In this document: positions 39,701 through 63,907 of the stretch, piece after piece
Layout of the letters: each line of letters opens with the position of its first letter
How positions within the stretch are numbered: position 1 is the first letter of the stretch
Assembly (NCBI GenBank): GCA_963969365.1
Contig: OZ017754.1
Coordinates: 372,001 to 436,000, forward strand
Source: Asterochloris sp. CNOR1
Lineage: Eukaryota; Chlorophyta; Trebouxiophyceae; Trebouxiales; Trebouxiaceae
Direction of reading: 5' to 3'
Length of the DNA: 64,000 bases
Program-made: the position numbers and the translations under genes
The notes under the pieces: generated by a model
The model's input: the letters and a program-made list of their open reading frames with translations, nothing else
What the model was told of the DNA's origin: nothing
Database searches by the model: none

Positions 39701-40935
39701 GGCCCTCACACCTTTTGATGGAGGCCCCAGAAGGTAAGTGAGAGTCCTCACCTGCGTCTCGGGGTTGCGGCAGGCATAGCACTGCACGTAGGTGTTGATG
39801 AACACCTCCAGCAGCTTGGACAGCACGCCTGAGTCGTGAGCGCCATTGACAATAGAGGTCCCTGAGCTCTTGTCGTACTTGGTCACCGCCCCCAGCTCAT
39901 TCCCAAAGAACTTGATGATGTCTGCGCAAGGGGCAAAGAGGGTCTGTCAGAGCAACGATGCAGTGCAGGGATCCAGGGCCCAGCTCATGAACAGCTCATC
40001 ATGCCTGCAAGAGACCAAGGTCAGGACTTGTGCAGGAGTGTAGGGCTTTTGCAGTAATGTGGTGACTGCGCCCCCCACACAATTTGATCTTGTCTGCAGG
40101 GGACCATAATAGCACCATAGATTGTGGCGGTGCAGTGCCTTGTAAAGGTCGGGAATTGCGCTCCGCTTGATGATGAAACCTGATGACATCTCAGAATGTG
40201 AAGGAAGCAGCCCTGGTTCCTCCAGCACATGAATACCTTGTCATGCCTGTAGCAACTCTGCAGGACTGTGGTCACCAAGGCCAGCTCATTTGCTGACAAC
40301 TTGAATGATGTCTGCACAGGGGTAAGCCATCAGCACAACCCTGATGTGCAGTGCTAAGACAAGCAGGGTCCCATTGGGTGGAGCTGCGCTCAGAGGTGCA
40401 GTCTGCTGCTTATGGGTCATAGACGGCTGGGCACCTCTGAAGGCTCAAGACGTCATAGCAAACAAAGCTTAGCAGCCCTGGTTGTAGGGTCAAATACAGC
40501 ACCAGGCCACCAGAGCCGCGGGGGGCGCTCATGCGCACAGCAGGCTGCGCTGGCTGCTGCAGCCCAGCAGCAGCATGCAGAAGCTGCACAGTGTCACTCA
40601 CAGTCTGGGGGCCGCTCCAGCGCTTTGGCAATCTCGACATTGTTCACAACATTGGTTTTGATGCCATTCCCGCGCCCCTCGATCTGCAGCATTAGTATAT
40701 TGAGATGAAAAGGACTGCTGCTTGCTCTGCTGATGACACAAGATCAGGACTCCAGGCACTTGAGAGGAGCCATGGAGGCCGCCAGAAGCTACAGGCATGG
40801 ACACCTCGGGGGAGCGTACAGCCCTTGGGCTGTGTGAACAGGGCATCTGGCACCCACCCTAGCCTGCAGCTTAGGCATCTTGTAGCGGTAGAACTGGTCG
40901 TCTGCATTTGCTTGGCCAATGTTGATGGTTGCCAT
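33735..40935 (-). CDS. EIF5: Eukaryotic translation initiation factor 5
   Basis: Eleven exons. The start (40935) is MATINIGQANADDQFYRYKM; Arg17 in QFYRYK matches the eIF5 arginine finger that promotes GTP hydrolysis by eIF2. Then GRGNGIKTNVVNNVEIAKAL (near 40684-40604), the conserved IKFFGNELGAVTKYDKSSGT exon (39921-39751), and the zinc ribbon CYAC...CKAC (39751, 39250). Next come RHKLNTFILKNPPEEKMSK, a Lys/Glu/Asp-rich linker including DDEDDDDDEGG (38258-38069), and a charged KREKEERKREKEEQRQRE helix (37419-37272). The C-terminal HEAT-like W2 domain spans 36509 to 34079 and the acidic end EADEDEDSEEDDDSLAG closes at 33735. The estimated size of about 480-490 residues is above the common 430-450 because of the charged linker. 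It acts in cytosolic 43S scanning complexes. Confidence 0.96.
36242..36330 (-). repeat. Duplicated exon end and donor site in eIF5
   Basis: The exon end MMRVLYE with donor GTGGGT lies at 36306-36309. An almost identical block (TACGAGGTGGGTGCCCC on the minus strand, with the same CTGGTGGTTGGTGGTCAT downstream) lies 64 bases further into the intron, near 36242-36265. Use of the distal copy would add 64 bases and shift the frame. It is therefore either a silent relic or a nonproductive alternative donor. Confidence 0.7.
40035..40325 (-). repeat. Two decayed copies of the eIF5 FFGNELGAVT exon start in the adjacent intron
   Basis: The active exon edge (39868-39935, plus: GGTCACCGCC, CCAGCTCATT, CTTGATGATGTCTGCGCA) is echoed at 40268-40322 (GGTCACCAAGGCCAGCTCATT, CTTGAATGATGTCTGCACAGGGG). 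A weaker echo lies at 40060-40104 (GGTGACTGCGCCCCCCACA, TTTGATCTTGTCTGCAGGGG). The copies extend across the acceptor into intron sequence and share flanking blocks (CATGCCTG, CAGGACT). The better copy still reads ANELALVTT on the minus strand. Confidence 0.75.
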
Positions 40936-42923: not shown

Positions 42924-45900
42924 ATGAGGGCTCAGGGGCTGGCCCGCCTGGCCGTCTCGGAGTCCAACATCTTGCTTGACAGCTGCCTGATCTTGCCTTC
43001 GCCTGCGTTACAGCAGATCAGGCCTTTGAGCAGGCTTCCCAGCCTGCCTGAGGCATGTCAGAGCCGTTGGCACCCGCAGATCTCCAGCAGAGGAAGTTGG
43101 CCTGCCCACCCTACTGCCTCGCAGGAAATGTTCCATTGCCATGCTTTCTCAACTGGCAGGCGGCAAATCAACCGAAAGTCTCCCACCCATTGGATAAACT
43201 CGCAGCAGCAAAAGGAAGAGGGACATGTCATTGACCCCGCAGTGTTGCAGCCAGCCTCACAAGATTCGAATCAAGCCCCAGAGGCTGCACAGGACCCTGG
43301 CAACGCTGTGCAGCCGTCAGCCACCAGGGCCTCGGACGTACAGGTGCGCCATTGGCAGCTGCTGTGAGCTTCAAGCCTTGACAAGGCTACTGCAATGTGC
43401 TTTCTCATCACAGCTTTGTGGCTGCAGGTTGCAGCTGTGGTGGACCATCCTGCGCTGGTCGTTACCAGAAATGTGGAATGGTGTGCTCAAGGCACAGCCC
43501 GATGCATTGCTTGCCATGCCTCGTGCAAAAGTGATCCGTCCCCCTGTAGCTTGGCCACGTGCTTGATGGCCCCAAGGGGGGCCACTGGCTGCAGCGGTGC
43601 AGGCCTGCATCTTATCATCATGAGCCCTGTCCATGTTGTGCCACGCTGCCCCAACTGCCATGGTGAATATTGTTGCATGCCTGCCCAGAACAGCTGGCCG
43701 CTGTGCAGGGTCAAGGGGCCTCTGGCCTTGCATCTGAGCAGCACCTTAACTTGCTCGACTTCCCCTCTGTGCAGGGGCACAGTCATCTTTGGCTTTGAGC
43801 AAGCCAACCGCTACACAGTGCTGGACCAGAATGGGAACACGGTGGCGCTCATGGCAGAGGAGCTGGGGTCCTTGGGGACAGAGGTGGGGCGTCAGTTCCT
43901 GCGCACGCGGCGGCCCTTCAAGGCCACTGTGTTTGGGCCGGATGGGCAGCAGGTCATCTTCACTGTCAGGCGGCCCTTTTACTTTATCAACAGGTGCGCA
44001 GGCCCAGCCCGCAATATGCTGGATTGTGTCAGGGTGCAGTGGGCAGCAGGTCATTGTCACTGGGCAGCTCAGACTACGTGCAAGGGCTTCTCAATGCATT
44101 GCACCTGCTGCTGTCTTCGCTGGTCCAGGATGAGGTCATATAATCAGTTGAATGAACAGCAGCAGGCAGGGCTCAGGACTTGACAAAGCAGCCTGGATGC
44201 AGCATCTTGCAGTGCTGAGCCTTTTTGAGATGTGCACCATCAATCGTGCCAGCCTGCCAGGTACCTTGTCTGTCATCTGCCCTACAGCTGCCATGTTTGT
44301 GAAGTGGCGCAGGCAACGAGCATGCTCTGCTGTCCTGCACCTTGCATTTACTACACCATGTTGCAATGTGTTCCCGATCTGAGCTGGGCAGCAAGGCTCA
44401 GCACTCTTCTCTTACTCTGTCCTGCAGCTCGCTGTTTGTGGAGGACGGCGCCGGCAATGTGATTGGGGAGGTCCACCAGAAGTGGCACCTCTGGCGCCGC
44501 AGATATGATCTTGTGCTGAATGGAAAGCAATTTTCGGCTGTCAACAGCGGCCTGCTGGCGTGGGAGTTCCTGCTGAGGGATGAGGCTGGAGGTGAGCCAG
44601 GGTTTGGCATGGTCTGCTGAGCGGGGCTGCAGCAGAGCAATGTCTGGACCGCTGAAGGTAAACGCCACTGTGCACGGCGCACCATGGTCTGCCGAGGTAA
44701 CCGCAGCTGAAAATGCATGCTGTGGTAGTCAATGTCCCCACTCCAATCTGAACTACAATGTCCTAGAGTTGGGCAACAGCACCTGCAGCAGATCAGTGTA
44801 TGCACAGCTGGAGGTCGCTGCTGCTGTGCATGCTGTGCATTGTCACCTGCTGAGGACGCCCATGGCAGGGGCCTGGCTGGGGCTGCTGATAAATACGTGG
44901 TTATCACAATCAGACTTGCATCTTACTGTTGACAGGCTGACAATGCCACATCCAGTTGCAACTGCTCAAGGTGGATCCAACTGTGTATGGCGCAATCTGC
45001 ACTGACGGCCCCAGGCCTGCTCTAGTGAGCCTGTGGGGCAGTGCATATCCCACTGCTACCCCAGGCAGCTGCTGTGCTGGCAATAAACAACTATGGCAAG
45101 ACCAGGTAATGTCCTGGCTGCAAGGCTGTGTCACATGTGCATTGTGCTCACTGCAGCGCTGCGGTGCCTGCAGGGCTGCTGGCACTGATCGACCGCAACT
45201 TCCAGGGCTTTGGGAAGGAGATCTTCACAGGCAAGGCTCAGTGAGACCTTGACAGCTGCGCCGCTCTGAGCCATCTGCAACACGCACAGGTTTAGATTTC
45301 TGGCATTGCATCAGCTGCTTGTCTAGCATGCCCTGCATTGCTCAAGTGATGCTTGAGCCTGCGTTAAGCCTGAGTGGCTGGAGATGGCGTGCTGCCAATG
45401 TGCAGACAGCTTTTGAGCCCAGATAGATCTTGAGCTCAGCTCTGACAGGCTGCTCTGTGCAGATGCGGGCAAGTACATCATCCACTTTGGGGACAAGCCT
45501 GAGCAGGCCGCAGAGCAGGCCGCCAACACGGTGGCGGCCGCCCACCCAGACAAGCCCCGCCCAGAGGTCACCACGCTCGCAAAGTATCGGAACCCTGACA
45601 TGAGTGTGGTGCCCACTGCAGCGGGCGACCAGCTGGTGAGGCGCCAGCGTGCATGTATGGCAGGGCAGCAGAGGAGCTGCTGTGACATGCAGCTGTGACA
45701 TCCAGATGCTGCAATGCATTCAAGTCACTGGCAGCATTGCACAGGCAGCAGGCTCTCAATGGAGACAGCTGCCGGCCAGGCTGGGCGGGGTCGCTAGGCA
45801 TGCACTTATTCTTGCATGACATGAATTGTCGCCCGGCAGCTGTTTGGCCAGGCAGGCTGTTCATTGCCGTGCTGCTGCAGTCAGCAGGTGCTGCTGCAGT

Positions 45901-48101: not shown

Positions 48102-51100
48102 ATGGCACCCACCGTCAAGCTTGGCCAGCCCAGCACCGAGCAGATTCAGCAAAACCCCCGCGAGGCCGCTCTCTATTACCAGCTTCTAGAGAGGGACTCT
48201 GTCACTCCCAAGGTAGACATCAGAGAGATGATCGAGTTTGGAATGCCGATGCATGCATGTGTGCCACAGGAAACAGGCAGGGTGGCATCATGCTTTGATG
48301 TTGGCAAGCCTGCCAAGTAGGCCTTGCACGAACATGCATGCATTTTTGGTCATGCCAGCGGCATGTTGGCAGTGTGATTTTACCTTAGGCTGACTGCCCC
48401 TGCACCAGTGCTGGGCCAGCTCTGCCTGAGGCATGGGCTTACTTTGACAGGTGTCTGACCGTCCACAGCCTTGAACCGTTGCTTGACTGCTGCACATCTG
48501 TGCACAGAGCCGCCACCAGCATTTCAGCTCCAACCTGTACCCAAAGCTTCCTGGCCTGCAGGACGTGGAGGCATACTCCAAGGAATTCGGCAGCGGCAAG
48601 AGCTTCTCTGGCTCAGAGGTCAGTTTCAAGGAGCTGGTGGAGCTCCTGCACAAGCCGGGGGAGAAGGTCGAGGGCTCTGGCAATGCGCTCAGCTATGCCG
48701 TGAAGAAGGCTGGCGCCAAGCTGGAGCCCATGAGGATCCCCCGCCGCAGCCTGAGGGATGATGACGTCCACTTCGCCATCACGCACTGTGGTGAGCCTGC
48801 CTTGTTAGATGTGGCTGGGGCGCCGTCATTAGGTTCAGTGCAGAGTAGACTCATGATGAGTGCGCCCTGTCGTCTGACTGCCCTGACCTTCTGCGGTGAG
48901 CCTGGGCTTGCGCGGTGGCAGTGTTAGCCCACTTGAGTGGAGGGCTGCTGCCAGCCCAGTAGTCATCGGGCTTTGTATTCCGAGATAGCCTTTGTGTCTG
49001 CATTGTGTGGCCTGACTCTCTGTGGGCAACAGCACACTTGAGTGGAGGGCTGCCAGCCATGCAGTCATTGGGCCCTTAATTCTGCATCAGCCTTTGTGTA
49101 TGCATTGTGTGGCCATACTCTTTGTGAGCAGAAGAAATAGCTGGGTGTGATCAGCACACCATGCCGTGAGACTGCCTCACAGCACGCTGTGCTGTCAGCT
49201 CAGATATCGGGAAGCGTTTGCAGCCAGTGCTCCATCTTGGAGGTGTCACGGGTGTCCTGTCATTTTGAAGGGCCTTGCATGGCTGATTGGCTCCAGGCCT
49301 TCACTCCATCAACACAGTGCTGTCCTCCGCTACCACTGCTGGAGTGCAGCAGCTCACACTTCATATGCTGCCTGTCTGCCTGGAGCTTTGCCTGTCATAG
49401 ATTGCAGTGCCAGAGTGCAGTATCTGACATGCTTGCCTGTCTGCCGCCTGGCTTGTGACCTTTGGACAAGGTTGCTGCTTTTTCAAAACACTTGTGGTGT
49501 GCTTGCTATGCACAAGCACACAAGAAGCAACATTTTGAGATGTGTCGTCCTGTGCTTGCTTGTGCTACTACGTGCTAAGCAAGTCGCGAAACAATACAGA
49601 CAAGTAGTTAGCACAAGGGCGCGTCCGTAGGGTGCAATGGTAGCCAAGGCTCACTGCGCAGCATGCCACTGCTGTGCAACATGGCTCCCCAACCCCTGCC
49701 CTTGTGATTCACCCTGCAGGCATCTGCCACACTGACTACCACCAGGTGAACGATGAGTGGGGTGGGGGCATCTTCCCCATGGTGCCTGGCCATGAGATTG
49801 TGGGCATCGTGACAGAGGTTGGGCCCAAGGTCAAGAGCCTGAAGCCTGGGGACCGTGTAGGGGTGGGCTGCTTCGTGGAGTCGTGCATGAAGTGTGACAG
49901 GTACAGCTCCTTGCCTCTGGTTGCCCATACCTCTGCATGGCACCATGCCAGGGCGCTGCTCGCTGCACCCCCTTGTGCTTGGCCTGCAGATGGCACAGTC
50001 TTGCTCTGCAGCAACCCCAGCCAAGTGCAGCTCTCTGGAGAGGCTGTTTCTGCAGTGGCTGCTGATGCTGCTCTTCTGCGTTGTTTGTTGTACTTGGCCG
50101 TGAGATGACATAGTCTGGCTGTGCAGCAAGCCCAGCCGATTGCAGACCTCACTGGAGAGGCTGCCGCTGCAGTGGCTGCTGCTGCCTTCTGGCCCCAATG
50201 CAGCTGCTGTCCACAAAGCATTCCTGTGCTGCAGGTGCAAGAAGCAGGAGGAGAACTATTGCCCCAAGTGCGTGCTGACCTACAATGCCAAGGACTACCA
50301 TGGGGACGTGACATATGGCGGCTACAGCACACATCTGGTGGTGCCTGAGCAGTGAGTGGCCTGCACGCAAAGGTTGTTTGCATATCTCAGCAATGTTGCT
50401 GGTGGTGCTGAATCTGAGAGGTGGGGGCGGGGCTTCAGGCTGGCAGCCATGTGGTGCATGAGCAACAAGTGGCATGCCTGCTGGCCTTGCCACGTAAGCG
50501 CCAACCACTGCTGACCAGCTTCTCAAGCACTGCTTCTGTCCAGTCATGCTGCTGTGCAAGGTCTGCTTTGCGAGGCCTGTCTCAGACTGGTTTGTGTGGT
50601 GCTGCAGCTACGCCCTCAGGGTTCCCAAGAACCTCGACCTGGCTGGCTGTGCCCCTCTGCTGTGCGCTGGCATCACCACCTACTCACCCCTCATGTACTA
50701 TGGCCTGAACAAGCCAGGTGAGCTGCTTCGCATCAATGTCAGTTGGGTTGCCCCATTGGGTGGGGGGTCTGGGGGGTGCACGACACCAGCTTTCATGATT
50801 CAGATTGTAAGTGCAGCTTGTCACCTCTTGAGCAAGCCTGGTAGGCCTACATGCTTCATCATAGTCCTAACACGCGCTTGTGACATGTGCCAGTCACAAG
50901 CTTGGCTGGCATGCAAGCATGGTGTGCAAGCCCGCCTGGTTCTGTTCGCTGGCTCACAGCCTGCTTCTCGCCATGCAAGCTGTGCTGGCACTGGAAGCCT
51001 GGTGTGACAGCCTGCTTGGTCCTGTTCCCTGGCTCACTGCCTGCTTTATGTCATGCCTGTAGGCATGAAGCTGGGTGTGATCGGCCTGGGTGGCCTGGGC

Positions 51101-53203
51101 CACATGGCTGTCAAGTTTGGCAAGGCCCTGGGCCTAGAGGTGGGCACACACTGCGACTGTGCACCTTGGCTGCTCAACACTAAGGCATCCCTGTTGGCAG
51201 CGTGGTTGTAAGCGCTGTCCAGTATTGTAGCCTGCTGGGTCTCAGTCCCCATCGGTGCTGTCTATCCACGCCAGAGTCCCTTTCCAGTGCTCTAGCCTGC
51301 TGATCTTCCACTCTCCTGCATGCCCTGCCTCGGTTGCAACGGCCTGCTCTTCATCTGGCAGCAGAGCGCTCACCACAGACTGACCAGCACCGTTGGCGAC
51401 AGGAGAGGGGGCAGGGGGGCAAAGGGTTTACTATACGAGGGTTGAGTCTACTGATGCCGGCGTTCACTGTACTGATGCCCGTCTGGAGCCCTGCAGGTGA
51501 CTGTCCTGTCCACCAGTGCCCACAAGAAGGAGGAGGCCATCAAGACACTGAAGGCTGACCACTTCATTGTCAGCAAGGACCAGGAGCAGATGAAGGTGAG
51601 GCGCCGTCACTCATCACGATCGAGCAGCGCATGCTTGCCTCCGAGGTCTTGAGAGTGGTCCTTCACACACAGTCCTGGCTTCAGCTTGCCCTGATGTTCT
51701 GCTGCATCATTTCACCCGGCTGTGGTCCCATGGAGCTCCGCTGGCTTCTGTGCTGGCCCCTCTGCTTCAGTGGTAAACGCAACGATTGTCTTCACCAGGC
51801 TGCTGCCCTGCAGGCTGCAGCCAACTCCCTGGACGGCATCATCGACACAGTGGCTGTCAAGCATCCCCTGGCTGACTACCTCAATCTGCTCAAGGTGTGC
51901 TGTTCACCTCTGCATGAGCAGCACCTGCAAGGGCTCTCCACTCGCCTGCCACCACATGGCAGCGTGCAGCAGCGTGTATGGGCAACACGCACCCCCTCCC
52001 TCTCCCCCAATTGGTCGTATGAGTGCGCAGCAGCCCCCTCCCCCAGGATGGGGGCCCCCTGCCTTGTCTCTGTGCGGCAGCTGTGCGCCGCCTCAGGCAG
52101 CGGGTGTGCAAGGCTGCCAGCCCACTATTGAGGCTGCCAGCCTCAATGCCAGTCCGCTGCAAGAGGCAAAGGATGCGGTCTCCCAGTACCAAAGCCTGCC
52201 TGTGCAGCACCTGCTAGCTGCGGTCTGCTACCCTGCAATTTCCTGTCACAACTGGCTTTCCATTGTCTTGCGTTCCTACCTGGCTTGGTCGTGAAGTGAC
52301 TGCGTTGCATGCTGCAGGTTGATGGTACCATTGTGATTGTGGGTGCAGCAGCAGAGCCCTTGGACCTTCCTCCCTTCGCCATCATCTCAAGTAAGCTTGG
52401 CCCTTTGTTTGTCCTGGCTGCCTCAGCTGTGCTACTTTGTCATGCCCATCCCTTGTTAACCCTCATGTATCTGGGCTTTCAAACAGCACATCCTGTTTGC
52501 AGAGAGGCTGAAGATTGGGGGCAGGTGTGTGCCGTGTCCTGTTGATCGCACACGCTTGCACCTGCATGTTGATTATTCAACCGGCACAGTGCTTTATTTT
52601 TGGTAATGCCAGTTACATGCCCTTTTGCCACAACAACTCTCACACAACTCCACCAGAACAACCTGCCAGCTTGTGACAATTGATTTGTTGCTGCTTTCAG
52701 CATGATTGGCGGGATCAAGGAGACCCAGGAGATGCTTGACTTCTGTGGTGAGTGTTTGCGATGGCGATCTGCAGTGCAGCAGTTGTACTGGAGCAGTTTT
52801 GATGGCAAGCATGAGTCCAGTCAGCCCTGCACAAGTTGCATGCTGCTGTTGCTGGAGGCCCTCAGGGTTGCTTGCTTTAACGCCTTGTCTCATGCCCATG
52901 TTGCCAAATGACTCCCCTTACGTCTGCAGGCAAGCACAACATCACCTGCGAGATTGAGAAGATCCCAATGGATTATGTGAACACAGCTCTTGAGAGGCTT
53001 ATTAAGAATGACGTCCATTACAGGTGAGGGTTGCTGTCAAAGTGTGCTCAGTTCCTCATGCAGTGACGCCAGTTAAATGTTACTGTACCATACATCTCAG
53101 CTTAGGCTCTCTTGACGGTGCACTCTTATATTGTCTCACACAACATCACATGGTGTGCAGGTTTGTGCTGGACATCCAGGGCTCACTGATCAACACAAAG
53201 TAG
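48102..53203 (+). CDS. Zinc alcohol dehydrogenase (cinnamyl-alcohol/YahK-like, NADP type) with N-terminal extension
   Basis: Thirteen exons, phase-checked, give 445 residues. The catalytic-zinc Cys is in [11 protein letters not shown], the His in GHEIVG and the second Cys in [13 protein letters not shown]. The structural zinc set is complete in [17 protein letters not shown]. The cofactor motif [20 protein letters not shown] is followed by [10 protein letters not shown], whose Ser/Lys pattern favours NADP(H). The end [15 protein letters not shown]...[17 protein letters not shown] fits medium-chain CAD-type reductases of aldehydes. Residues 1 to about 100 ([20 protein letters not shown]..., [20 protein letters not shown]) precede the normal domain start and are not part of the usual ~350-residue protein. 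Exon 10 (52503-52524) is only 22 bases. Exon 12 to 13 joins at HYR-FVLD. Introns 2, 3 and 5 carry tandem duplications. Confidence 0.93.
48930..49138. repeat. Two-copy ~105-bp tandem repeat in ADH intron 2
   Basis: CACTTGAGTGGAGGGCTG at 48930 and at 49035 begin two copies that also share CAGTCATTGGGC/TAGTCATCGGGC, AGCCTTTGTGT and GCATTGTGTGGCC in order. The copies differ by about one base in eight, so the duplication is moderately old. No coding potential is seen. Confidence 0.75.
49991..50190. repeat. Two-copy ~115-bp tandem repeat in ADH intron 3
   Basis: Blocks CATAGTCT or CACAGTCT, TGCAGCAA-CCCAGCC, GCAG, CTGGAGAGGCTG and CTGCAGTGGCTGCTG occur in the same order from 49991 and from 50106. 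The second copy ends close to the acceptor of the exon that starts at 50235. The unit contains its own TGCAG sites. Confidence 0.7.
50934..51057. repeat. Duplicated intron 3' end before ADH exon 6
   Basis: GCCTGGTTCTGTTCGCTGGC and GCTTGGTCCTGTTCCCTGGC begin two copies 80 bases apart (50934 and 51014). Both continue CTCAC-GCCTGCTT and CATGC. The second copy runs directly into the acceptor CCTGTAG of exon 6 at 51063. The first retains CCATGCAAG at the matching place, a potential decoy acceptor. Confidence 0.7.
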
Positions 53204-53420: not shown

Positions 53421-56400
53421 TCAGGTGGTCATCTGGGCTCCCAACGGATTGAATTTAGGGAATATACTGTACAAGCGTTCCTGCAGTGGCTTGCAGGCGG
53501 CATCGTCAGACATGCTGGAACCAGCTTCCCCAGCTTGTAGCTTCTGCAGCAGTAATGTGGCTGTAGCAAAGGCTCTGCCTGTCCGGCTGCGGCCTGCAGT
53601 AGTGGTCCCTGCAACAGATGGCTGACATGAGTCTGCACTGCTCCACGGGATAGAAAAGGTTACTGCAGTGAGACGCACTGAGCGGCCACTCACCTTGCAC
53701 CCCTAAGGCTACACACAACTCCAGTGCCCCCAAGGCTGTGTGCCACTCCCCTCCTTGCCAACTGGACGCTGCCAGTGCAGCTGCAGCATCTGCAAATTCC
53801 TCTTGCACCTGCAGGGTTGCCGCCATGACCTGTCTTGGGATGAGCCAGTATTTGTGTCCTCAACTCAATGGCACGATTATGAGGATGCAGCCCGTCAGAG
53901 AGGCAAACGCTTGCATCATCTGCCAATGTGGCCCCATGAGCTGCCTCAGGCCGCACCTTGGCACCCTTAGCTGCAGCCAGCAATGCTTTGATGCCCACAT
54001 TGTCAAGCACTGCTGGGGCCTGCAGCACTGCTATGCCCTGTGGGTGTGGGCGCTCCTCTTTCGACCCTGCCCCAGTCTTGCCTGCCGTCAGACCTGCAGG
54101 CCCAGCTGCCATGTTGGCAGGCCCTGGACTGTTCTCCTTATCTGCAGCGAGGGCACACAAAGCTTTAGGGCTGGCACCAGCCCGAAGAGAAGTGCTCCCA
54201 GATCCAGGTGGCTAGTGACAGCACCATCCACTCTGGCCATGGAGCATAGGTGCAGCTGGCACATGGTATGATATTGGAAAGAACAGAACAGAATTGCATC
54301 AGCTTCAGCTGTGGTTGCCGACAGATAAGGTTGGTGTGCGTGTGAGCCTGTACGGGCTGCTTGACAGCAAGCTTGCAAGGTTGACCAGTAATCTGATGCT
54401 CACCCTGCTCAGAGTCTTGCTCTGTACAGCTCTCTGGCTCATCCCTGTCCTGCCTCTGCTGAATCTGCATGTCTGCTGCAACCTTGGCTGCTGGATCCAA
54501 CCACCTGTGGGCAACAGCCCGTATATGTTGCACATTCCAATAAGCAGGCAGGGTTGCGTCTCTGGCCTCTACTCCGTAAAATGCAAGTTTGCAGGTGAGC
54601 TTCATGGGCAGGACATTAGTCACACAGGAAGCCTGATGGCTTGTGGGAACAGGGTCCTTTGGGTGTACACAGTGCAAGTCAGCCGATGAAAGTGTTTGCA
54701 GCGCAAAGTTGGAGCGTGAATGGCAGACCCACCTCTGTGGCAAATGGCGGCACCCCACAGCAGCCGCCACGCAGCTGGGCAGCACTGGGCGCAGGGCAGA
54801 GACCGCAGGGCTGCTGCACTCCGTCCCAGCCACCAGCACCTGCACTGCTGCATGCAGCAGGTCTGTGGCCACCTCTGCCTGAATGGCAGCCTCGCCTGCG
54901 GACTGCAGCAGGTTGCGCGCCAGTGCAGCGCAGTGGGCAACTGCAGACCCCAGCAGCTCTGCTGCAGCCTGCCTCCCTGCAGGGGTCCAGCAGGCCAGTC
55001 AGGCTGATCTGGAGAATGGAGGGCTGCCAGCCCTGGCAACTCTGCTGCGGCTTGCCTTGTGGCAGGGGCCCCTGTGGAGTGCAGCTGTCACGGCTTGTGC
55101 AGGCAGGAGAGAACTTGTGCTTGCTTGCTGCTGCAGAGCAGACGGGTCAGCCTGCTCTGTGGAGTGCAGCTGCCACAGCATGTGCTGGCCGCGGGAAGCT
55201 TGCTGCGTCACAGCAGACAGGTGGGGACCAGGTGACACACCTTCATCAGAGGCAGCTGCCTCTGCCGCAGCGCCCTGCAGCTGCTGAACCAGGGGGGCTG
55301 CCAGCTGCCCTGCACACTGCACAGCAGAGGCAGCTCCAGTCGGCCCCAGCAGCTGCACAGCATCGCCTGCCAGCGCCACCAGCTGCTCCACCAGCTGCAT
55401 GGCTGCAGCTGTGGCGTAGAGCCCTCTGGGGCCAGCTGGCTGTGCAGCTGGGGCTTGCTGCGCTGTGCCCTGATGGCCCCGCCGCGCACGCTTGGGCTGC
55501 GGTGGCTGCGGCGCGGCCTCCTCCGCAGCAGCAGGCGCCTGCATGGGGGCACTGTCTCGTGAGTGTGCGCTCCACAGGCTCTGTTCCCCCACAGGCTTGC
55601 CCTGCCGTCCCGGCCTCCGTGGAGCACACTCCTTCAGCGTGCGCGCCACAGGCTCGCCACACAGGCTTGGCCTGCCCTGCCAGCCTGCAGGTGGCACCTT
55701 CTTCCATGAAAGCATGTGCTGTCGGCTTGAGCATGACAGGCCCTCTGGGAGTTGCCTCCTGTGGCGCTAATTGCAAAGCCTGGCTTGTGACACAGGAGCA
55801 TAGCATATGTGGCTCCACTGCACTGGTTCAGTGGCCCAATGCTCTACAGATCTGACCTGTACTTTGCATCGAGGTGAGAGTGTGGTGTCATGCTGTGCGC
55901 CACAGGCTTGCCACACAGGCTTGCCATGCCCAGCCAGCCTGGCATGATACCCATGCACAAGAAGTCAACTTGTCTGCTCCCATCGACCCAAACGGTCTGC
56001 ATGGCTGGGTGTGATCTTCATTGCGTGTTGGTCCTTACAAGCAGGCAGCTGCACACGGCACACAGCGTGGCGCACCAGGCTGTCAGCAGTCGCCGCCGGT
56101 CCTGCCTCCGCCAGCTGCCTTAGCAGCCTGCACCCGGTCTCTTGCGCCGCATCAAAGGCAGCGTTGAGCAGGGAGGCCGGGTCCTGCCCTGGCAGCAGCA
56201 ATGCCACGCCTGAACCTTCTCCTGCAGGTGGTGGCTCACTGCAGCGGGCGTCAGCAGCCTGGCCGGCACCAGCTGCAGCGCGCACGGCAGCCTGCGCATG
56301 CAGAGCAGCGCGGCAGGGCAGCAGCACGCTCAGGGCTGCAGCCTCTGCCTGGAGCTGGCTGAGCCTGAAGACATTGGACTTGGAGTCCTCCAGGCTGGCT

Positions 56401-59400
56401 GTGGCGTCGTGCAAAGGCTGCAGTGCTGCCTCCTGCTGTGTGACTGCCTCGGGGGCGAGGGTGCAGGCCAGCAGCTGGTGCAGCAGGCTGGGCTGGCCGG
56501 GGGCCTCCTGCAGGAGGGCGCTGCGGCACGCCGGCATGTGCAGCAGGACGTCCAGGCACCTGCACCGCACATGTGGGTCAGGCTGCAGCCCGTCGGTATC
56601 TGCAGCAGGATGTCCAGGCACCTGAACTGCACAGCTTGGTCAGGGGACGGCTTCGCACGCCTTGTGTCTGGGGCAGTGGGGGGCACCGGGACCGACCTGC
56701 CCCCACAAGCCCAGAACATGGTGACACCTCTGCATGTGCTGGGTGAGTGCTGCTTGGTGCTCTGCTGAGGCACACGCATGACTCAGGCATGCTGCCAGGG
56801 GTTCCTCCTGCTGAGTGCACCTGCCAGCCTAGATGCAGCCTGAGAGAGCTTTGCACAACCTGAAGCAGCTCCTCGCCCACCTCAACGCTGCCCCATGAGT
56901 CATCTCAGCCTGCTCCACGATGGCACTGCACTCCTCGCAGCACCAGCGGCCCCCCTGGCTGCTGCAGCCCTCAGCGGCACAGCGATCATGGCAGGCAACA
57001 GGGCATGAGATGCAGCGCAGCATGGGGGCACCCTCAGCCGCTTCTCGGCTGTGCCCGGCCTCCATGCAAACACAGCAGGAGGCAGGTGCTGCTTCTGCCT
57101 CCTTGGGGGCAGGTTCTAGGGCTGGGGAGATCTGGCGAAACCTGCTGCGACCAGAGCGCCGCGCACCTGCACAGGCCACCAGAGTCAAGTTCAAAAGCAC
57201 CTTTCGTGGTGGGGGCTGCCTACACCCAAAGCCTTCTGCTGTGAAGTAACATCCTTGCGTGTGCACCAGGGCGACTTCACAGGCAGCAGGGCTGCCAGGG
57301 CAGATTCAACGGCCCTTGAAGACGTGCATGGATGGCCTTAGCCACCCTCGTCCCCATGGAGGCTCCTGCAATTGAGGCAGCACAGCCAGGGGCACGGCTG
57401 TGAATGCCATCCAAAGGCCTCAGCAGGATCACTTGAGACCAGCCCAAAACACACTGACGCTGTCCTGTCCCCCATGTCAGCACGGCAGCCAGCTTGCCCT
57501 GCATTTCACGCGCCACACAAGACTCGCCTGGGCCTTGGGCGACCTCCACTGCTGCTGCTGGTTCCCGTGCCACGGCACTCCCTGCCTCCTGCTCAGCCGT
57601 GGCAGGCCAGATTGCGCCAGGGTCCTGGCCCAGACCCTTGGCCATGCCTCTGGCAAGCAGAGCCAGGCCCGGCCCACTGGCAACGGCGTGCAGCAGGGCC
57701 TGCAGCTCCAGGGAGCTCATGTCGGCCAGGGCCTCGGCGTTGCAGCTGAGCACAGCCTCCAAGCAGCTGCAGGCACACTCTGGATGTCACAGCACGAAGC
57801 TGAAGTCAGTCCCATGCCCTGCAGTGGGGCAGCTCTTGGACAGCCAGGACTAGACATGACATGCAATCTGTAAGCCCCATGTGGGCCTGCTTTGCAGCAG
57901 TCAACTGTGATCCAGCACTGCCACGCAGCTGTGACGTCACGCCCCATGCCTACCTGCAGGTAGTGACTTTCCTTGAGGACATGTGGCCCCTGTGCTTTGC
58001 AGCGTAGGGTGCTCAACAGGTTTCCTTCATGTGCAGCTGATTCAGTCACAGTGCGACAGCGGCCCTGTGGCAGCGCTTGCGCACTGGACAGAAGCAGTGC
58101 GCAGATGAGCAGCGGCTCAGCCCACACTCAGCTGCTGCGCCGTTGGCAGCTGTGCAGTAGCTGTTGGAATGAGCAGCACAGCAGCACTGTGAGGGGCACC
58201 ATCACCCACCACCAAGACGCATGCAGTGCGTCTGCAAATGCTGAGACTCACCCTACCCTCAGCTCCTGAGCCGCTGGCAGCTGTGCCACTGCCGCTGCAA
58301 TGGCCAGCACAGCTGCCCGAGCCCCAGCACTGCCACATGATGCGTACAGCTGCAGCAGGGACCCAGCTGGCAGCGCTGCACTGACAGCTGCAGGCGGCAG
58401 GGTGCCGGCCGCCACTGCCCGCGCCACCCCCGCAAACAGCTCTGCCAGGCCGCCCAGAATCCCCTCCCAGCCTTCTGGTTCCTCCCTTTGAGTGACCTCC
58501 ACCTGGCGCAGCGGTCTACCTCAAGGGCTTGACTGATGCAGGGGAGGCTATAGGTAATTCTGAGGGCTGCGCAATGCCTGCATGCATCTGACAGCAGACC
58601 ACAATTCAACGTGGCCGCATGCAGCGCTCGAAAGAGCACCGTGCATCTGTGCAGAAGTCTCGGTAGCAGCCATGCAGCCAGACAGACGCGCCTGACCAAT
58701 GCTGTCAACTCCTATCTGCATGAGGCACAACCCTGCGTACCTCCTCATTGCCCCCTTCCCGCTCAGGGAAGTCATCACGCTGCCGACGCTGGGTGGGCTT
58801 GCTGCTGGCCTGCCTCCGCTTGGCCTGCCTGCCCCGGCCGCCAGCTCTCCCTCTTCCAGCCTTCTGCGCTGCCTTGGGTCCAGCAGGCTCAGGTCCCTCC
58901 GGCTGCTGTGCTCTTGACGAGTCTGGGGCACTGACCAGCAGATGGTCCAGCAGCACAACTGCCAGCTCAGCCAGGTGCTCAGCAGAGATGCTGCTGTCTG
59001 CAGGACAGGTCAACAGCTATGTCAGTTCCTGGAATATCTGCATGCAGCTCTGACAGGGCATACTGAGCTGTCTATGCCATGGCTGCTGTACCTGAAGTCC
59101 CTCATTCTGTCTGCCAAGTCATTGAGGGGGCTTTTCCCGGTCAGTGTGTTTACTTGCAGACAGATGTGACACAGCAAGGGCTCACCAGCTTTGCTCGCTG
59201 TGCTGCAGGCTGTACCAGCCAGATAGCTGCAGAACGCCCTGCCTGCAACAGGGGTCTGCCGCAGCAGCATCGCCACGCGAGCAGGACCCTCGACCCCATC
59301 TGCATACAGCACATCAAGGGTGTAATCTGCTGAAATGGACCCAGTTCTCACAAGCACAAGAACAAGCCCTGCCCTCATTGTCCAGTCTGGGCTACAAGAC

Positions 59401-62400
59401 TGTAAGCGACTTGCTGCGACATTGAAAGAGCCTGCCTTGCATAACCCCAGGTTCCTGCGGCTGCGCACTCTGCTGACATGCAACGTCGGCAGGGCAGCGT
59501 GCATAGCCTTTGCCTGGAGCTGCAGCAATGCACGTGCAGCGGACCTGGCTAGAATCCCCCAACACACGGGTTGCTGCTTTACGTCACGTTTCACCTGGAT
59601 GCAACCACCTCAAGCAGCCTTGGCATCTCACCCGGAAAGTAGCTGGGCAGCAGCACCTTCTGGATGCGTGCAGAGACAGCTGAGCAGTCCGTGGTCATGG
59701 CCTCCAGCAGCACGTCAAGGGGAACGACATTCACAAAATGCAGCTCCTTCACATGCCTGCAGGGCAGCATTGACACTGCAGTTCCCCCTGTGCTGCCCCA
59801 CGAGCTAGTAAGACCTCCGTAATGCCAATCCCGTGTGCCCACAGGGCAGCACAGCTTCACTTATGCGGCGGGTGCCACATGGATGTGCAATCCCTAGCTT
59901 TGTTTCTGATGGCAGGTGGACTTCGACTGAATCAATCCGTGACTTGCTACGTGTGTCATGCTATGCATGCCCCCCGCTGCATGCAGTAATGCCTCAACAA
60001 ATGCGCCGGCGGGCAGTGTGCTGTTGACGGACTCACATGACTGCCAGCAGCAGGTCTGCCACTGCAACACGGACCCTCTGGGCGCTGTCCCACACCAGGG
60101 GCCTCAGCTTGGGGAGCATAAGCTTGAGCACAGGCTGCGTCAAGGGGTTCTGCACCAGGCTTGCCAGCCCCTCCACCACTGCCGCACGCACTGCTGGCGC
60201 ACTGGCATCAAAGGCCAGCTGCTCTGCAGCAGAGGTGAAGTGGCAGAGTTCAGGTGCCTGGGCCTCAGGTGTCCATGTTAAGAGGGCAGCAGCAGCAGCA
60301 GCTTGGAAGCGCCTGTGTGATCACCTTCTCCTTCACTGGGCTGAAGCGCCGCAGCTGAAATGCAGCACCAAAGCCCAGAGGCACATCACTTAAACCAAAG
60401 CCCCCACAGCAGTTACAAGGCACTTCAGCACTCCTGCAAGCCATGTAATCGTGCAGCTGTCGCAGCTCAAGCAACATCAGGCCTCCAGCACTCATGAGAG
60501 GCGTTCCGCACCTGTCAACCGCTTGAGGTAGGCCGCCGTAGTGGCTGAGGGCACCATCTCCCAGAACACGTTGAGGATTTGGCAGATGCCAGCAATGGCG
60601 GCCACCCTGACTGCAGGCGCAGGGTCCTCCAGTCCGGCCGTCAGCCTCTGAAACTGCTGCATCAGCAGTTGGTCAGCCTCCTGCAGCAGGCCCACATTGT
60701 TCGGCCTCATGCTAAGCTGGGTGGCATTGGGGCTGGAGGGAGCGCAGTCTGAAGCTGCAGGGTGCAGCATGCAGCAATCACTGGACAGGTTGATGCAAAA
60801 GCACCCAGCGCAGGAGAATGGTCGGCACAGGTCTTCTTGCTAGCCACTGCATTGCATACGGTCACCAAGCCAGCAGCATTAACATCACCTCCTTGCCTGC
60901 TGGGTATCTTCCAGGCTCGTCAGACAGATCATCTTCCCCACTTGCTGTGAACCATCGACATCTCTGCGCAAGCTCACCTCCCGTGTGCCATCCAGGTCTG
61001 TGAGAGGGAAGGCCTCCACCAGCAGCTGCAGAGCGTTTCGGCGCACAGCAGGGTTGGCAGCTGCCATATCTCTGAACAGCAGGGGCTCATACAGGCGCAG
61101 CAGCATCGCGTCTGTCGCCCCGACAGACTTGTGCTGGTGCAGTCCATGCAGCACACGCCGCAGGGAGGTGGCTACTGCTGGGCTGGCCACCCTGAGGGCT
61201 TGCTTCATCAGGCTCTGCATGCAGCAAGAGGCTGATGCGCATTGCTGCACAGGCATCTGCACTGCTGATTGGCGATGCGCCGACTATCTGCTGGCAGCAC
61301 GAATTAAGTGCCAAAGGATACTTGGTCTGCACATCACGTGCGCACCCATACGCTGGGCTCAAGCAGCAGGAGGTGCTTTTTGTCTTACATCATTGCTGAC
61401 ACCGGCCGATAAGGGATTCAGCACACCTCCTGTAATTGCAGCACAGTGCCATGTCTTTGCAGAGGCGCCTCTTGATGCAGCTAGGCCCAGGAACAAAGGA
61501 CTCACACAGCCGACAGAGGACACTCACATCTTGGATGAGATGGTTCTCGATGCGCTCCAGGCAGGCTCCTGTTGCATCCCTCCACGCCTTGTACACTACC
61601 TCGCCATAGGCATCCAGCACAGACTTGCGCCCGCTCAGAATTTGGTTCAGCAAGACCGCCGTCAGTTCGACCACCATCTTGGGCTGCAGCGGCCAGCAGG
61701 GCGGCGGTCAGGAGCGTGGCAGTGCAGCACAGTTGCGCGGGTCCCCCATCTCACACAGCTGCAGGGAGTAACAGAGCACTGCACGGTAGGGTCACATCTG
61801 GCTCAGTGACATGGCCAAGACGTCAACCACCATTCTGTGCTATGCAGGCAGGTGCAGCAAAACAGCACAGCAGGGATGATCTGCACCCCATGCCATTGCA
61901 TGGAAACACTCTCTTATACGGCGTGGACACTGAACCAGTTCAGTGCCTTGTCCCTCTGGCATGCAGAGATCACACAGCCAGCGTCCTGCATATCTGCCCC
62001 CCACAAGAGGCGTTTGCAAGTAGGCAGTGACAGGAGCATTCGACCCTGCGCGCACATGCATGTTACTGTCTCCCTCTCCCCTCTCACGTGCAGATTGAAG
62101 AGGTAGGCCACAAAGCGCCGCCCCTCAGCCAGGCGCAAGAAGGCCGGCAGCATGGCCGCCCGCAGCAGCAGGCCCTGCACGCCCTCGATGGAGGCATCGT
62201 CGAAGTCCAGCAGCTGGAGCGCGGGGCGCAAGGCGTGGCAGCGCTTCACGTCCACTGCGCGGCCTGCAGGGCAACGCCAGGGCAGCGCAGGAGCAGTGTC
62301 AGTGTTGCTGCTCTGCCACAGCTACGTCTGGCTTGTCAGTGTGGCCAGTGCTTGCCACTCGAGCTTTCAGTATTCACCAGCAGGCATGGTGCTGGTTGTT

Positions 62401-63907
62401 GAGCTGCTTGGTAGTGCCTGACGTGCACCACGCTGCACCAAATAGCAAGAAGAGCTGATGAGTTGGTCAGCAGCGAGCCTTCACCTTGGGCATGGCCAGC
62501 AGCCAGCAAACATGTTGGACTAGAAGCCAGGTTTTGCAAAAGCACTTGATGGGAGCACTTGATAGGGGCTAGGAGCAGCTGCGAGGAGCACCAACCATTT
62601 GTCTTGCTCAGGTTTCCAGCCTCACCTGAGGTGACAGCCTGGTACAGCAGGTAGGGCACCATCTGGGGCACCAGGCAGTCTCGCCCCGGCAGCTCTGCCT
62701 GCCACCAGGCACTGCAAAGGCGGGCCACAGCATCTGCCACCTCTGGGCCTCTCTGCTGCAGCGCCTGCAGCAGACTGGCTGGTCAGTGTGCAGCCTGAGG
62801 GTGTCTTGTCCAGAAAGCGTCACATTGGCCTGCCCAAGCGGCCAGTAATTTTGCACCAGCGCCAGACCGGCCGCGACCCTGTGGAGCTGGAAGCCTTGCC
62901 TTGTCCTGCTGCTTTACTGTGCTCCAGCATTCCTGGACCCACCTGGAGTACATGGCGCACGTGGTGTAGGCCGCCAAGTCGCACTTTGCTCCTTTGAACC
63001 GTGACCAGGTTCGATCAACAATGAGCAGGAGGCACTGCAGCACACCTATGCATGCAATTGCAGCTAGTCAAGGCTGCATTGTCCTGCCACTGGGGCATGC
63101 CTGCAGCAGCAGCAGCAGCAACCGTGGCTCAACAGACTCAAGGGCGGCTCACGAGAATGGCATTGTCGTGCAGGCGGGTCACTGCCTGCTGCAGCGGCTG
63201 CGGCACGGCGGCTGGCTGCGCACTGCTCTCCGCCACCAGCTTTCCAATGATGCTGACCAGGGCTAGAATGGCCTGGTGGCCTTCCTCAGCCTGCATGAGC
63301 CATGCAGAAGGGTGGGGGTCCTCTGGTATGATGGCTGCTTTCTTGACCAGGGCTGCGGTCAGATCAAGTAATCTGGGTCAGCCAGTCACACAGAGAGTTT
63401 GGCTGCAGGTTGGGGGGCCTGCTCAGCCACCTGCTATGCTGTCTCTGCATGATGCTTGCTGGCGCTGGTGACTGGTTCAGGCCGATTGCATGAGCACAAG
63501 ATGAAGTTGAGGCTTGCCTGCTGGGGAGCTGCCTCGTCTGGCAGCTGGCCTTCATCTGTGTCCACGAGGGCCATGAGTGCCAGGGAGACATCCACCTGCA
63601 TGCAAGTGCTTGGGTTGGTGCCATTCAACAAGAGCAACTGGGAGGACAGAGCTCCATTGGTGCCTCACCTGATGCAGGATGCCACTGCAGAGTTCATGCC
63701 TTTTGTTTTTGGGCCAGGCTTGCAGCAGCTCATCCAGACAAAAGCAGCCATCTGCACTCTGCAGCAAACAAGAGAGGGTCAGTGTAATGCGAAAAGCAGC
63801 ATTGGCAACAGAGCCTGCAGCGACCTCACATCTCTCTCTACCAGCTCGAGTAGCTTATAGGGCGCCTTGTCACTCAATGCATCCAGCAATACTGCAGTGA
63901 CCTTCAT
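53421..63907 (-). CDS. NCAPG2: Condensin-II complex subunit G2 (NCAPG2/CAP-G2) with an embedded PHD finger
   Basis: The start is ATG 63907 (MKVTAVLLDALSDKAPYKLL), with an in-frame TAA five codons upstream. Exons then follow the known NCAPG2 order: CFCLDELLQAW; AVARLCSAWWQAELPGRDCL (near 62700); LQLLDFDDASIEGVQGLLLR with AEGRRFVAYLFNLH (near 62100-62220); VYKAWRDATGACLERIENHL-IQD (61677-61530); MLLRLYEPLLFRDMAAANPA then NALQLLVEAFPLTDLDG (61150-60980); LEDPAPAVRVAAIAGICQIL then FWEMVP (60700-60500); RIQKVLLPSYFPGEMP (near 59640); LLRQTPVAGRAFCSYLAG (near 59250). The C-terminus EFADAAAALAASSWQGGEWH...LELCVALG matches the conserved tail, and the stop is at 53421. These HEAT repeats organise condensin II for mitotic chromosome compaction in the nucleus. 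A PHD finger interrupts the C-terminal third. Confidence 0.9.
56539..56632 (-). repeat. Duplicated acceptor and exon start in the condensin gene
   Basis: The active exon starts (minus) GTGCCTGGACGTCCTGCTGC and encodes CLDVLLHMPACRSALLQEA. About 62 bases upstream in transcript sense, at 56601-56632, the near-identical GTGCCTGGACATCCTGCTGC follows its own CAG, giving CLDILLQIPTG. This is a tandem copy of the splice acceptor plus the first dozen codons. It offers an alternative acceptor. Confidence 0.7.
56928..57077 (-). other. PHD-type C4HC3 zinc finger inside the condensin-G2 gene
   Basis: The minus-strand exon near 57170-56900 reads CCVCMEAGH, then MLRCISCPVACHDRCAAEGC, then GGRWCCEECSAIV. 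The spacing is C-x2-C-x17-C-x2-C-x4-H-x2-C-x13-C-x2-C, with a Trp two residues before the last Cys pair. This is exactly the PHD consensus. PHD fingers usually read histone H3 tails. The exon opens after a TGTGCAG acceptor and is preceded by a basic RRSGRSRFRQ stretch. HEAT-like exons of the same strand lie on both sides (LQALLHAVASGPGLALLARG upstream, CLDVLLHMPACRSALL downstream). Confidence 0.8.

What the first reader, a model, noticed from the sequence alone, without database searches (positions are those of the whole stretch)
56928..57077. A PHD finger embedded in condensin-II subunit G2
Sequence shows a complete C4HC3 PHD signature in one exon, flanked on both sides on the same strand by HEAT-like exons of a gene whose start and C-terminal tail both match NCAPG2. 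Characterised animal and plant CAP-G2 proteins are, to my knowledge, HEAT-only. If one mRNA spans both, this alga has a condensin II with a built-in histone-reading module, which would give the complex a direct way to choose chromatin.
Basis: partly seen in the sequence, partly recalled or inferred. Interest (0 to 1): 0.78.

Follow-up and report, generated by a model that had tools for sequence, protein, structure and literature searches.

The report
PHD-like zinc finger inside CAP-G2
A gene for a chromosome-folding protein (condensin II subunit CAP-G2) in an unnamed eukaryote appears to carry, in one of its middle exons, a small zinc-binding module of a type that in other proteins often grips histones, which would give this machine an extra handle on chromatin if messenger RNA confirms it.

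Summary
The C4HC3 (PHD-type) signature is real, exactly at 57077-56928, minus strand: the only such pattern in the window, in 0 of 100 shuffles. A 24-exon minus-strand model (63907-53421) joins into one 1505-aa frame with the finger at aa 896-945. The N-terminal half is clearly CAP-G2 (Pfam 3e-43; human CAP-G2 5e-65). Skipping the finger exon breaks the frame; an intact finger has no plausible start of its own nearby. Weak points: PF00628 scores at most 12.1 bits (cut-off 24); single-sequence AlphaFold models are poor; the exons downstream of the finger match nothing, so the claimed C-terminal CAP-G2 match is not confirmed; ab initio scoring does not decide on including the exon; no relative was found, so conservation is untested. 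The finger lacks the aromatic cage of H3K4me readers, so 'methyl-histone reader' is unlikely; histone-tail docking, as shown for the PHD finger of land-plant SCC2, is the better guess. New variant of a known kind, pending RNA.

The parts
56928..57077 (-). C4HC3 PHD-type finger, C-x2-C-x17-C-x2-C-x4-H-x2-C-x13-C-x2-C, Trp two before the seventh Cys; aa 896-945 of the model
   Evidence: sub-threshold full-length PF00628 match
56881..57166 (-). exon 17 holding the finger, 286 nt, enters in phase 1 and leaves in phase 2
   Evidence: acceptor gcctgtgcag| and donor GAG|gtgggc
57167..57527 (-). intron 16, GC-AG type (CAG|gcgagt), 361 nt
   Evidence: best-scoring of 484 GC dinucleotides in 58502-55241; 7 of 8 consensus bases
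56560..56880 (-). intron 17, 321 nt, GT-AG
   Evidence: 3 of 165 GT in 58502-55241, itself included, score at least as high as its donor; 7 of 288 AG, itself included, at least as high as its acceptor
57528..57766 (-). exon 16, upstream flank, no database match of its own
56076..56559 (-). exon 18, downstream flank, no database match of its own; its donor was chosen by dynamic programming
53421..63907 (-). CAP-G2 (NCAPG2) gene model, 24 exons, 1505 aa, ATG at 63907, stop ending at 53421
   Evidence: exon boundaries are predictions without RNA
59186..62774 (-). exons 6-13, aligned to human CAP-G2 residues 125-569 (the alignment starts in the last residues of exon 5), holding Pfam Condensin2nSMC and one HEAT repeat
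   Evidence: Pfam 3e-43 and 7.4e-06, PDB 9f5w_G 5e-65
56520..56643 (-). 62-bp tandem duplication (82% identical) that doubles the exon-18 acceptor; only the downstream copy keeps the frame with exon 17
   Evidence: frames

Best explanation
An exon coding for a PHD-type zinc finger is part of the CAP-G2 gene of this eukaryote and is translated in frame with it, so that the second HEAT subunit of its condensin II carries a zinc-finger module about 280 residues past the end of the part alignable to human CAP-G2. Shown from sequence: the finger signature, the CAP-G2 identity of the N-terminal half, and phase-compatible splice sites on both sides. Inferred: that one mRNA carries all exons, and that the finger folds. 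Inferred by analogy only: the finger is an extra chromatin contact that binds histone tails without reading H3K4 methylation, much as the PHD finger of the land-plant cohesin loader SCC2 does, helping condensin II to dock on nucleosomes. My odds: the finger is real coding sequence 0.9; it is in the CAP-G2 mRNA 0.75; histone-tail docking is its role 0.4, the remainder being protein-protein contact or structural support.
For: C4HC3 pattern 1 in the window against 0 of 100 shuffles and 0 of 200,000 residue permutations with the aromatic. One 1505-aa frame across 24 exons. Joining exon 16 to exon 18 shifts the frame and meets a stop within exon 18. The only donor of the exon-16 frame with 7 of 8 consensus bases has the phase that exon 17 needs. 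The first Met of the finger's own frame is the fifth residue of the finger, after two of its eight ligands; among ATGs at 58250-57170 spliced directly to 57166 with a donor of 6 of 8 or better, the three candidates are two inside exon 16 and one of 13 nt. Third-position G+C 0.68 against 0.69 for the other exons; synonymous-codon score +3.9, within the range of the other exons. Two-gene readings that keep the finger whole or unused score 6.9 to 8.6 units lower at an intron cost of -10, before any cost for an extra stop and start. Best PDB sequence matches of the core: 7 of 9 are PHD proteins (CHD4, AIRE, BRD1, PHF12, TRIM66 three times), at E 0.22-0.82. Precedent: land-plant SCC2, another HEAT-repeat SMC regulator, carries a PHD finger that binds histone tails (PMC7304647, abstract, found passages and sections 12 and 16 read).
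Against: No RNA and no relative. PF00628 is below cut-off and C1_1, also below cut-off, scores higher. Two of the nine PDB matches of the core are sodium channel subunits; the whole open frame matched three LIM-type chains and ATG4B, no PHD protein. Two AlphaFold runs without alignment gave mean pLDDT 60.0 and 59.1, and Foldseek found no PHD. A plain ab initio search did not choose the whole exon: at intron costs -10 and -12 its best path leaves the finger out, at -8 it keeps only 56958-56881. Trained on the finished model, paths with and without the finger score 157.5 and 156.0 before equal intron costs. The two-gene comparison depends on the intron cost: from the parts, stopping at 57277 and restarting at 56537 is behind by 2.9 at -12 and ahead by 1.1 at -14; restarting at Met 57065 inside the finger is behind by 1.5 at -10, ahead by 0.5 at -12, and ahead by 1.0 by synonymous score at -10. 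Exon-17 full-codon score is near zero, 0.02 per codon. The intron-16 donor is GC, not GT. No database match ties exons 14-24 to CAP-G2.
Confidence: 0.6

Rival explanations
1. Two genes: CAP-G2 ends before or with the finger (stop at 57277, or at 56829 after the finger), and the exons from 56537 (or from Met 57065 inside the finger) on belong to a separate protein.
For: Exons 18-24 have no detectable match to CAP-G2; in-frame ATGs exist at 56537 and 57065. By the parts, restarting at 57065 scores 116.0 against 117.5 for one gene at intron cost -10, and slightly more than one gene at -12 or by synonymous score (55.1 against 54.1).
Against: Stopping at 57277 or 56829 and restarting at 56537 scores 110.6 and 108.9 against 117.5 at -10, without charging for a second start and stop; the extensions past exons 16 and 17 to those stops have full-codon scores of -1.6 and -4.9. 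A start at 57065 would leave a finger without two of its ligands. No TGTAA (the green-algal poly(A) signal, recalled) lies on the minus strand between 60417 and 56039; the one at 56039 is downstream of the finger, in intron 18, and the next, at 53022, lies past the final stop (scanned down to 52000). Human CAP-G2 has 574 residues beyond the aligned part, so a long C-terminal half is expected (lengths).
Confidence: 0.15
2. The finger exon is not part of the main mRNA: an alternative or cryptic exon, or a remnant in an intron, skipped in the functional transcript.
For: Ab initio search at intron costs -10 and -12 prefers a 69-nt exon 57235-57167 joined to 56599 in its place.
Against: Direct splicing of exon 16 to 18 shifts the frame; the rival short exon ends at the finger exon's acceptor, which it reuses as a donor, and scores 1.5 lower after retraining; an unused remnant would not be expected to keep eight ligands, the Trp and an open frame.
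Confidence: 0.12
3. The module is a zinc finger of another kind, for example a degenerate C1-like or RING-like module, or a PHD finger that serves as a protein-protein or structural element and does not touch histones.
For: C1_1 is the top Pfam match, though partial (positions 10-44 of 53) and below cut-off; no Tyr or Phe in the finger; structure models inconclusive.
Against: The C1_1 match does not cover the C-terminal CxxC; the ligand order C4HC3 is that of PHD, whereas RING is C3HC4 (PMC10693458, passage); spacing and Trp fit PHD (recalled pattern).
Confidence: 0.3

Closest known systems
Condensin II subunit CAP-G2 (NCAPG2), human, PDB 9f5w chain G
   Same: Model aa about 156-615 align to human residues 125-569 at 5e-65; Condensin2nSMC domain 3e-43.
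   Different: Model is 1505 aa against 1143; it carries a C4HC3 finger and a basic linker (exon 14). Neither search with the finger brought up a CAP-G2 chain. The C-terminal half is not alignable by these sequence searches.
Land-plant SCC2 (cohesin loader) with PHD finger (PMC7304647; abstract, found passages, sections 12 and 16 read)
   Same: A PHD finger in a HEAT-repeat regulator of an SMC complex; no aromatic Y-Y-W set for methylated H3K4; its authors show binding to H3, H2A and H4 tails and a need for it in meiosis.
   Different: Cohesin loader, not condensin II; the authors report the SCC2 PHD absent from the green algae Chlamydomonas, Volvox and Micromonas. Its sequence was not at hand, so no alignment was made.
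Human CAP-D3 and CAP-G2 binding H4K20me1 tails by HEAT domains (reported in PMC5819170 and PMC4671695, passages read; original paper not read)
   Same: CAP-G2 as a chromatin-contacting subunit. PMC5819170 also reports human condensin II anchored by TFIIIC and H3K4me3.
   Different: The contact is by HEAT repeats, not by a zinc finger.
MMD1/DUET PHD protein of Arabidopsis (PMC10693458, passage read)
   Same: Links a PHD finger with condensin II in plants.
   Different: A regulator of CAP-D3 expression, not part of the complex.

Membership tests
CAP-G2 (NCAPG2) | Condensin2nSMC domain PF12422 | tested here: met
   147.9 bits, cut-off 27
CAP-G2 (NCAPG2) | homology to a known CAP-G2 chain over the N-terminal half | tested here: met
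   9f5w_G 5e-65
CAP-G2 (NCAPG2) | homology over the C-terminal half | tested here: inconclusive
   exons 18-24: no PDB sequence at E 10; exons 13-16: only an SH3 chain at E 1.6
CAP-G2 (NCAPG2) | assembles with CAP-H2 and SMC2/SMC4 | not testable with these tools
   needs an experiment
PHD finger | C4HC3 ligands with PHD spacing and conserved Trp | tested here: met
   (pattern recalled)
PHD finger | PF00628 at or above gathering score 24 | tested here: not met
   at most 12.1 bits, full profile length
PHD finger | cross-brace fold | tested here: inconclusive
   single-sequence models, pLDDT 60.0 and 59.1, no PHD in Foldseek
H3K4me-reading PHD | three aromatic residues (Y-Y-W, PMC7304647 section 12) | tested here: not met
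   no Tyr or Phe in aa 896-945, one Trp at the structural position (sequence, by eye; no structural alignment)
C1 domain | PF00130 at or above 26.5, full length | tested here: not met
   15.6-17.7 bits in exon, core, open frame and exons 17-18, 7.8 in the 1468-aa model; positions 10-44 of 53

The most novel reading that the evidence does not exclude
A lineage of eukaryotes has built a histone-tail-binding PHD finger into the HEAT solenoid of condensin II itself, so that the complex docks on nucleosomes through its own subunit, independently of the land-plant invention of a PHD finger in the cohesin loader SCC2.
Probability: 0.3. Interest if true: 0.75.

Novelty: new variant of a known kind. 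Interest (0 to 1): 0.5.

Why it matters
How condensin II chooses where to act on chromatin is open. A natural CAP-G2 with a finger in the same chain would offer a separable module that can be deleted to ask the question. With SCC2 of land plants it would be a second case of a PHD finger grafted on a HEAT-repeat regulator of an SMC complex, pointing to repeated evolution.

Tried and rejected
Relatives: viral contigs with exon 9, the finger exon and exons 7-13, and genome contigs with exons 6-13 found none (exon 13 only in its first residues in the last two); these are collections of viruses and of bacteria and archaea, so absence says nothing about conservation. The window's own genome is not held.

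Separate start for the finger: not supported, but one search tested only ATGs at 58250-57170, one first exon, and direct splicing to the acceptor at 57166. Transposon origin: BLAST of the finger exon and both introns against the window gave only short matches besides themselves and the 62-bp tandem duplication; the three inverted-repeat pairs in 56500-57900 have arms of 14-18 nt. A lenient tblastn of the finger against the window (low-complexity filter and composition correction off) gave many weak matches, best E 4e-04 at 36% identity, which I take as composition; not followed up.

Ab initio gene finding: my codon and splice scores do not decide the matter. The path search had too low an intron cost, made many tiny exons and was set aside (its splice-site scores are used). 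The first exon list had off-by-one ends, the second an unresolved exon 3/4 junction, which another acceptor at 63290 solved; the exon 18/19 junction was changed likewise.

Structure: both AlphaFold jobs used single sequences and are uninformative. NCBIfam has no match for the finger. Rfam and tRNA scans of the window are empty.

Literature: in ten searches no listed title or abstract start describes a PHD finger in CAP-G2 (one search listed 20 of 21 papers). Of five papers opened I read passages in PMC5819170, PMC4671695, PMC10693458 and PMC8044525, and the abstract, passages and two sections of PMC7304647. The library lacks most subscription papers.

Full report
What is there. On the minus strand at 57077-56928 one open frame spells CCVCMEAGHSREAAEGAPMLRCISCPVACHDRCAAEGCSSQGGRWCCEEC: ligands C-x2-C-x17-C-x2-C-x4-H-x2-C-x13-C-x2-C with Trp two before the seventh Cys. 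The window holds one such match in six frames; of 100 dinucleotide shuffles none holds one for the strict pattern and 2 do for the loose pattern (patterns recalled). Because the stretch is rich in Cys (11 in the exon) I also permuted residues: 0 of 200,000 permutations of the exon give the full signature and 5 give C4HC3 without the aromatic; for the core 0 and 24. Chance is not a good explanation.

How strong is 'PHD'? By curated score it fails: PF00628 gives 11.9-12.1 bits for the core (cut-off 24) although all 47 positions are covered; 10.1 in the exon and 7.8 in exons 17-18; PHDvar_NSD 12.7-12.8 in the core; C1_1 16.6-17.6 in the core but only positions 11-44 of 53. In the 1468-aa model PF00628 is not listed at E 10, only PHDvar_NSD (E 3.6) and C1_1 (E 3.9); in the 158-aa open frame only C1_1 is listed at E 1. 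PDB sequence search of the core lists PHD proteins (CHD4, AIRE, BRD1, PHF12, TRIM66 three times) in 7 of 9 rows and sodium channel subunits in 2, all at E 0.22-0.82, so none is significant alone; the whole open frame gave three LIM-type chains and ATG4B. Two AlphaFold runs without alignment are poor (pLDDT 60.0 and 59.1) and Foldseek shows no PHD. I call it PHD-type on ligand order and spacing.

The gene. Exon by exon I assembled a model of 24 exons, 63907-53421, one frame, 1505 aa. Pfam finds Condensin2nSMC at 3e-43 and a HEAT repeat at 7.4e-06 in the earlier version of the model, and PDB finds human CAP-G2 (9f5w_G, 1143 aa) at 5e-65 over human residues 125-569. So the upstream part is CAP-G2. 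Exons 18-24 (562 aa in the earlier version) match no PDB chain at E 10, exons 13-16 only an SH3 chain at E 1.6, and exons 19-24 no Pfam family at E 10. The model's end fits its surroundings: a zinc dehydrogenase gene (ADH_zinc_N 7.1e-19 for a fragment stitched by eye) lies on the plus strand with its last frame ending at about 53203, facing CAP-G2.

One mRNA or two? Exon 17 enters in phase 1 and leaves in phase 2. Exon 16 offers one donor with 7 of 8 consensus bases in its frame, CAG|GCGAGT, a GC donor of the right phase, the best of 484 GC sites in 58502-55241. The donor of exon 17 is equalled by 3 of 165 GT sites, its acceptor by 21 of 288 AG sites and the exon-18 acceptor by 7 of 288, themselves included. 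Joining exon 16 straight to exon 18 shifts the frame and meets a stop inside exon 18. The finger's open frame has its first Met at the fifth residue of the finger, and of ATGs at 58250-57170 spliced directly to 57166 with a donor of at least 6 of 8, two lie inside exon 16 and one, at 58222, makes a 13-nt exon with a weaker donor. At an intron cost of -10, readings with two genes restarting at 56537 score 110.6 and 108.9 against 117.5 for one gene, without charging for the extra stop and start. A second gene restarting at Met 57065, inside the finger, scores 116.0, and by synonymous score 55.1 against 54.1 for one gene; it would lack two zinc ligands.

Results against. A free search with my simple scoring left the finger out at intron costs -10 and -12 and kept only its tail at -8. 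After retraining on the finished model, the path with the finger scores 157.5 and that rival 156.0 before equal intron costs: a near tie. The two-gene comparison also leans on the intron cost: taken from the parts, at -12 one gene has 109.5 against 106.6, 102.9 and 110.0, and at -14 it has 101.5 against 102.6, 96.9 and 104.0 (stop 57277 with restart 56537; stop 56829 with restart 56537; stop 57277 with restart 57065). A likely reason for the weak coding score is that Cys-rich sequence is rare in the training exons: exon 17 scores 0.02 per codon by full codon use but +3.9 in total (0.041 per codon) by synonymous choice, within the range of the other exons. So ab initio scoring neither supports nor excludes the exon; the signature and the frames carry the argument.

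What it does. No test of function was possible. PHD domains that recognise methylated H3K4 have three aromatic residues, Y-Y-W (PMC7304647, section 12). This finger has no Tyr, no Phe and a single Trp at the structural place, so reading of H3K4 methylation is unlikely, even though human condensin II is reported to be anchored by TFIIIC and H3K4me3 (PMC5819170, passage). The nearest working precedent is the PHD finger of land-plant SCC2: it too lacks the aromatic set, is shown by its authors to bind H3, H2A and H4 tails irrespective of methylation (acetylation inhibits), and is needed in meiosis; they report it absent from SCC2 of Chlamydomonas, Volvox and Micromonas. Human CAP-G2 and CAP-D3 are themselves reported to contact H4K20me1 tails, through HEAT domains (PMC5819170 and PMC4671695, passages). 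A tail-docking finger in CAP-G2 is thus plausible, not shown.

Novelty. Ten literature searches listed no paper whose title or abstract start describes a PHD finger in CAP-G2, but the library lacks most subscription papers and no eukaryote protein database could be searched, so annotated relatives with the same architecture may exist. Four scans of viral and prokaryote collections found no relative, as expected. I rate it a new variant of a known kind, interest 0.5, dependent on RNA and on conservation.

Noticed in passing
56520-56643: 62-bp tandem duplication, 82% identical, doubling the acceptor of exon 18; the unit is not a multiple of three, so only the downstream acceptor keeps the frame with the finger exon.
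   Followed up: partly
55634-55687 and 55888-55941: A direct repeat of about 55 bp, 87% identical, inside intron 18.
   Followed up: no
   Followed up: no
about 51000-53203, plus strand: Convergent neighbour: zinc-dependent dehydrogenase (ADH_zinc_N 7.1e-19 for a fragment stitched by eye).
   Followed up: partly
39170-39946 minus; 43368-44183 plus; 23413-24126 minus: Of 20 further long ORFs scanned, three with notable Pfam matches: eIF5/eIF2B domain (1.6e-14), scramblase (1.6e-14), cyclic-nucleotide-binding domain just below cut-off (1.2e-05); two others had weak matches below cut-off.
   Followed up: no
63517 and 57527, minus strand: Two of the 23 introns of the model use GC donors (introns 3 and 16), more than the usual share of about 1% (recalled); a trait of the genome, or a sign that these junctions are wrong.
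   Followed up: no
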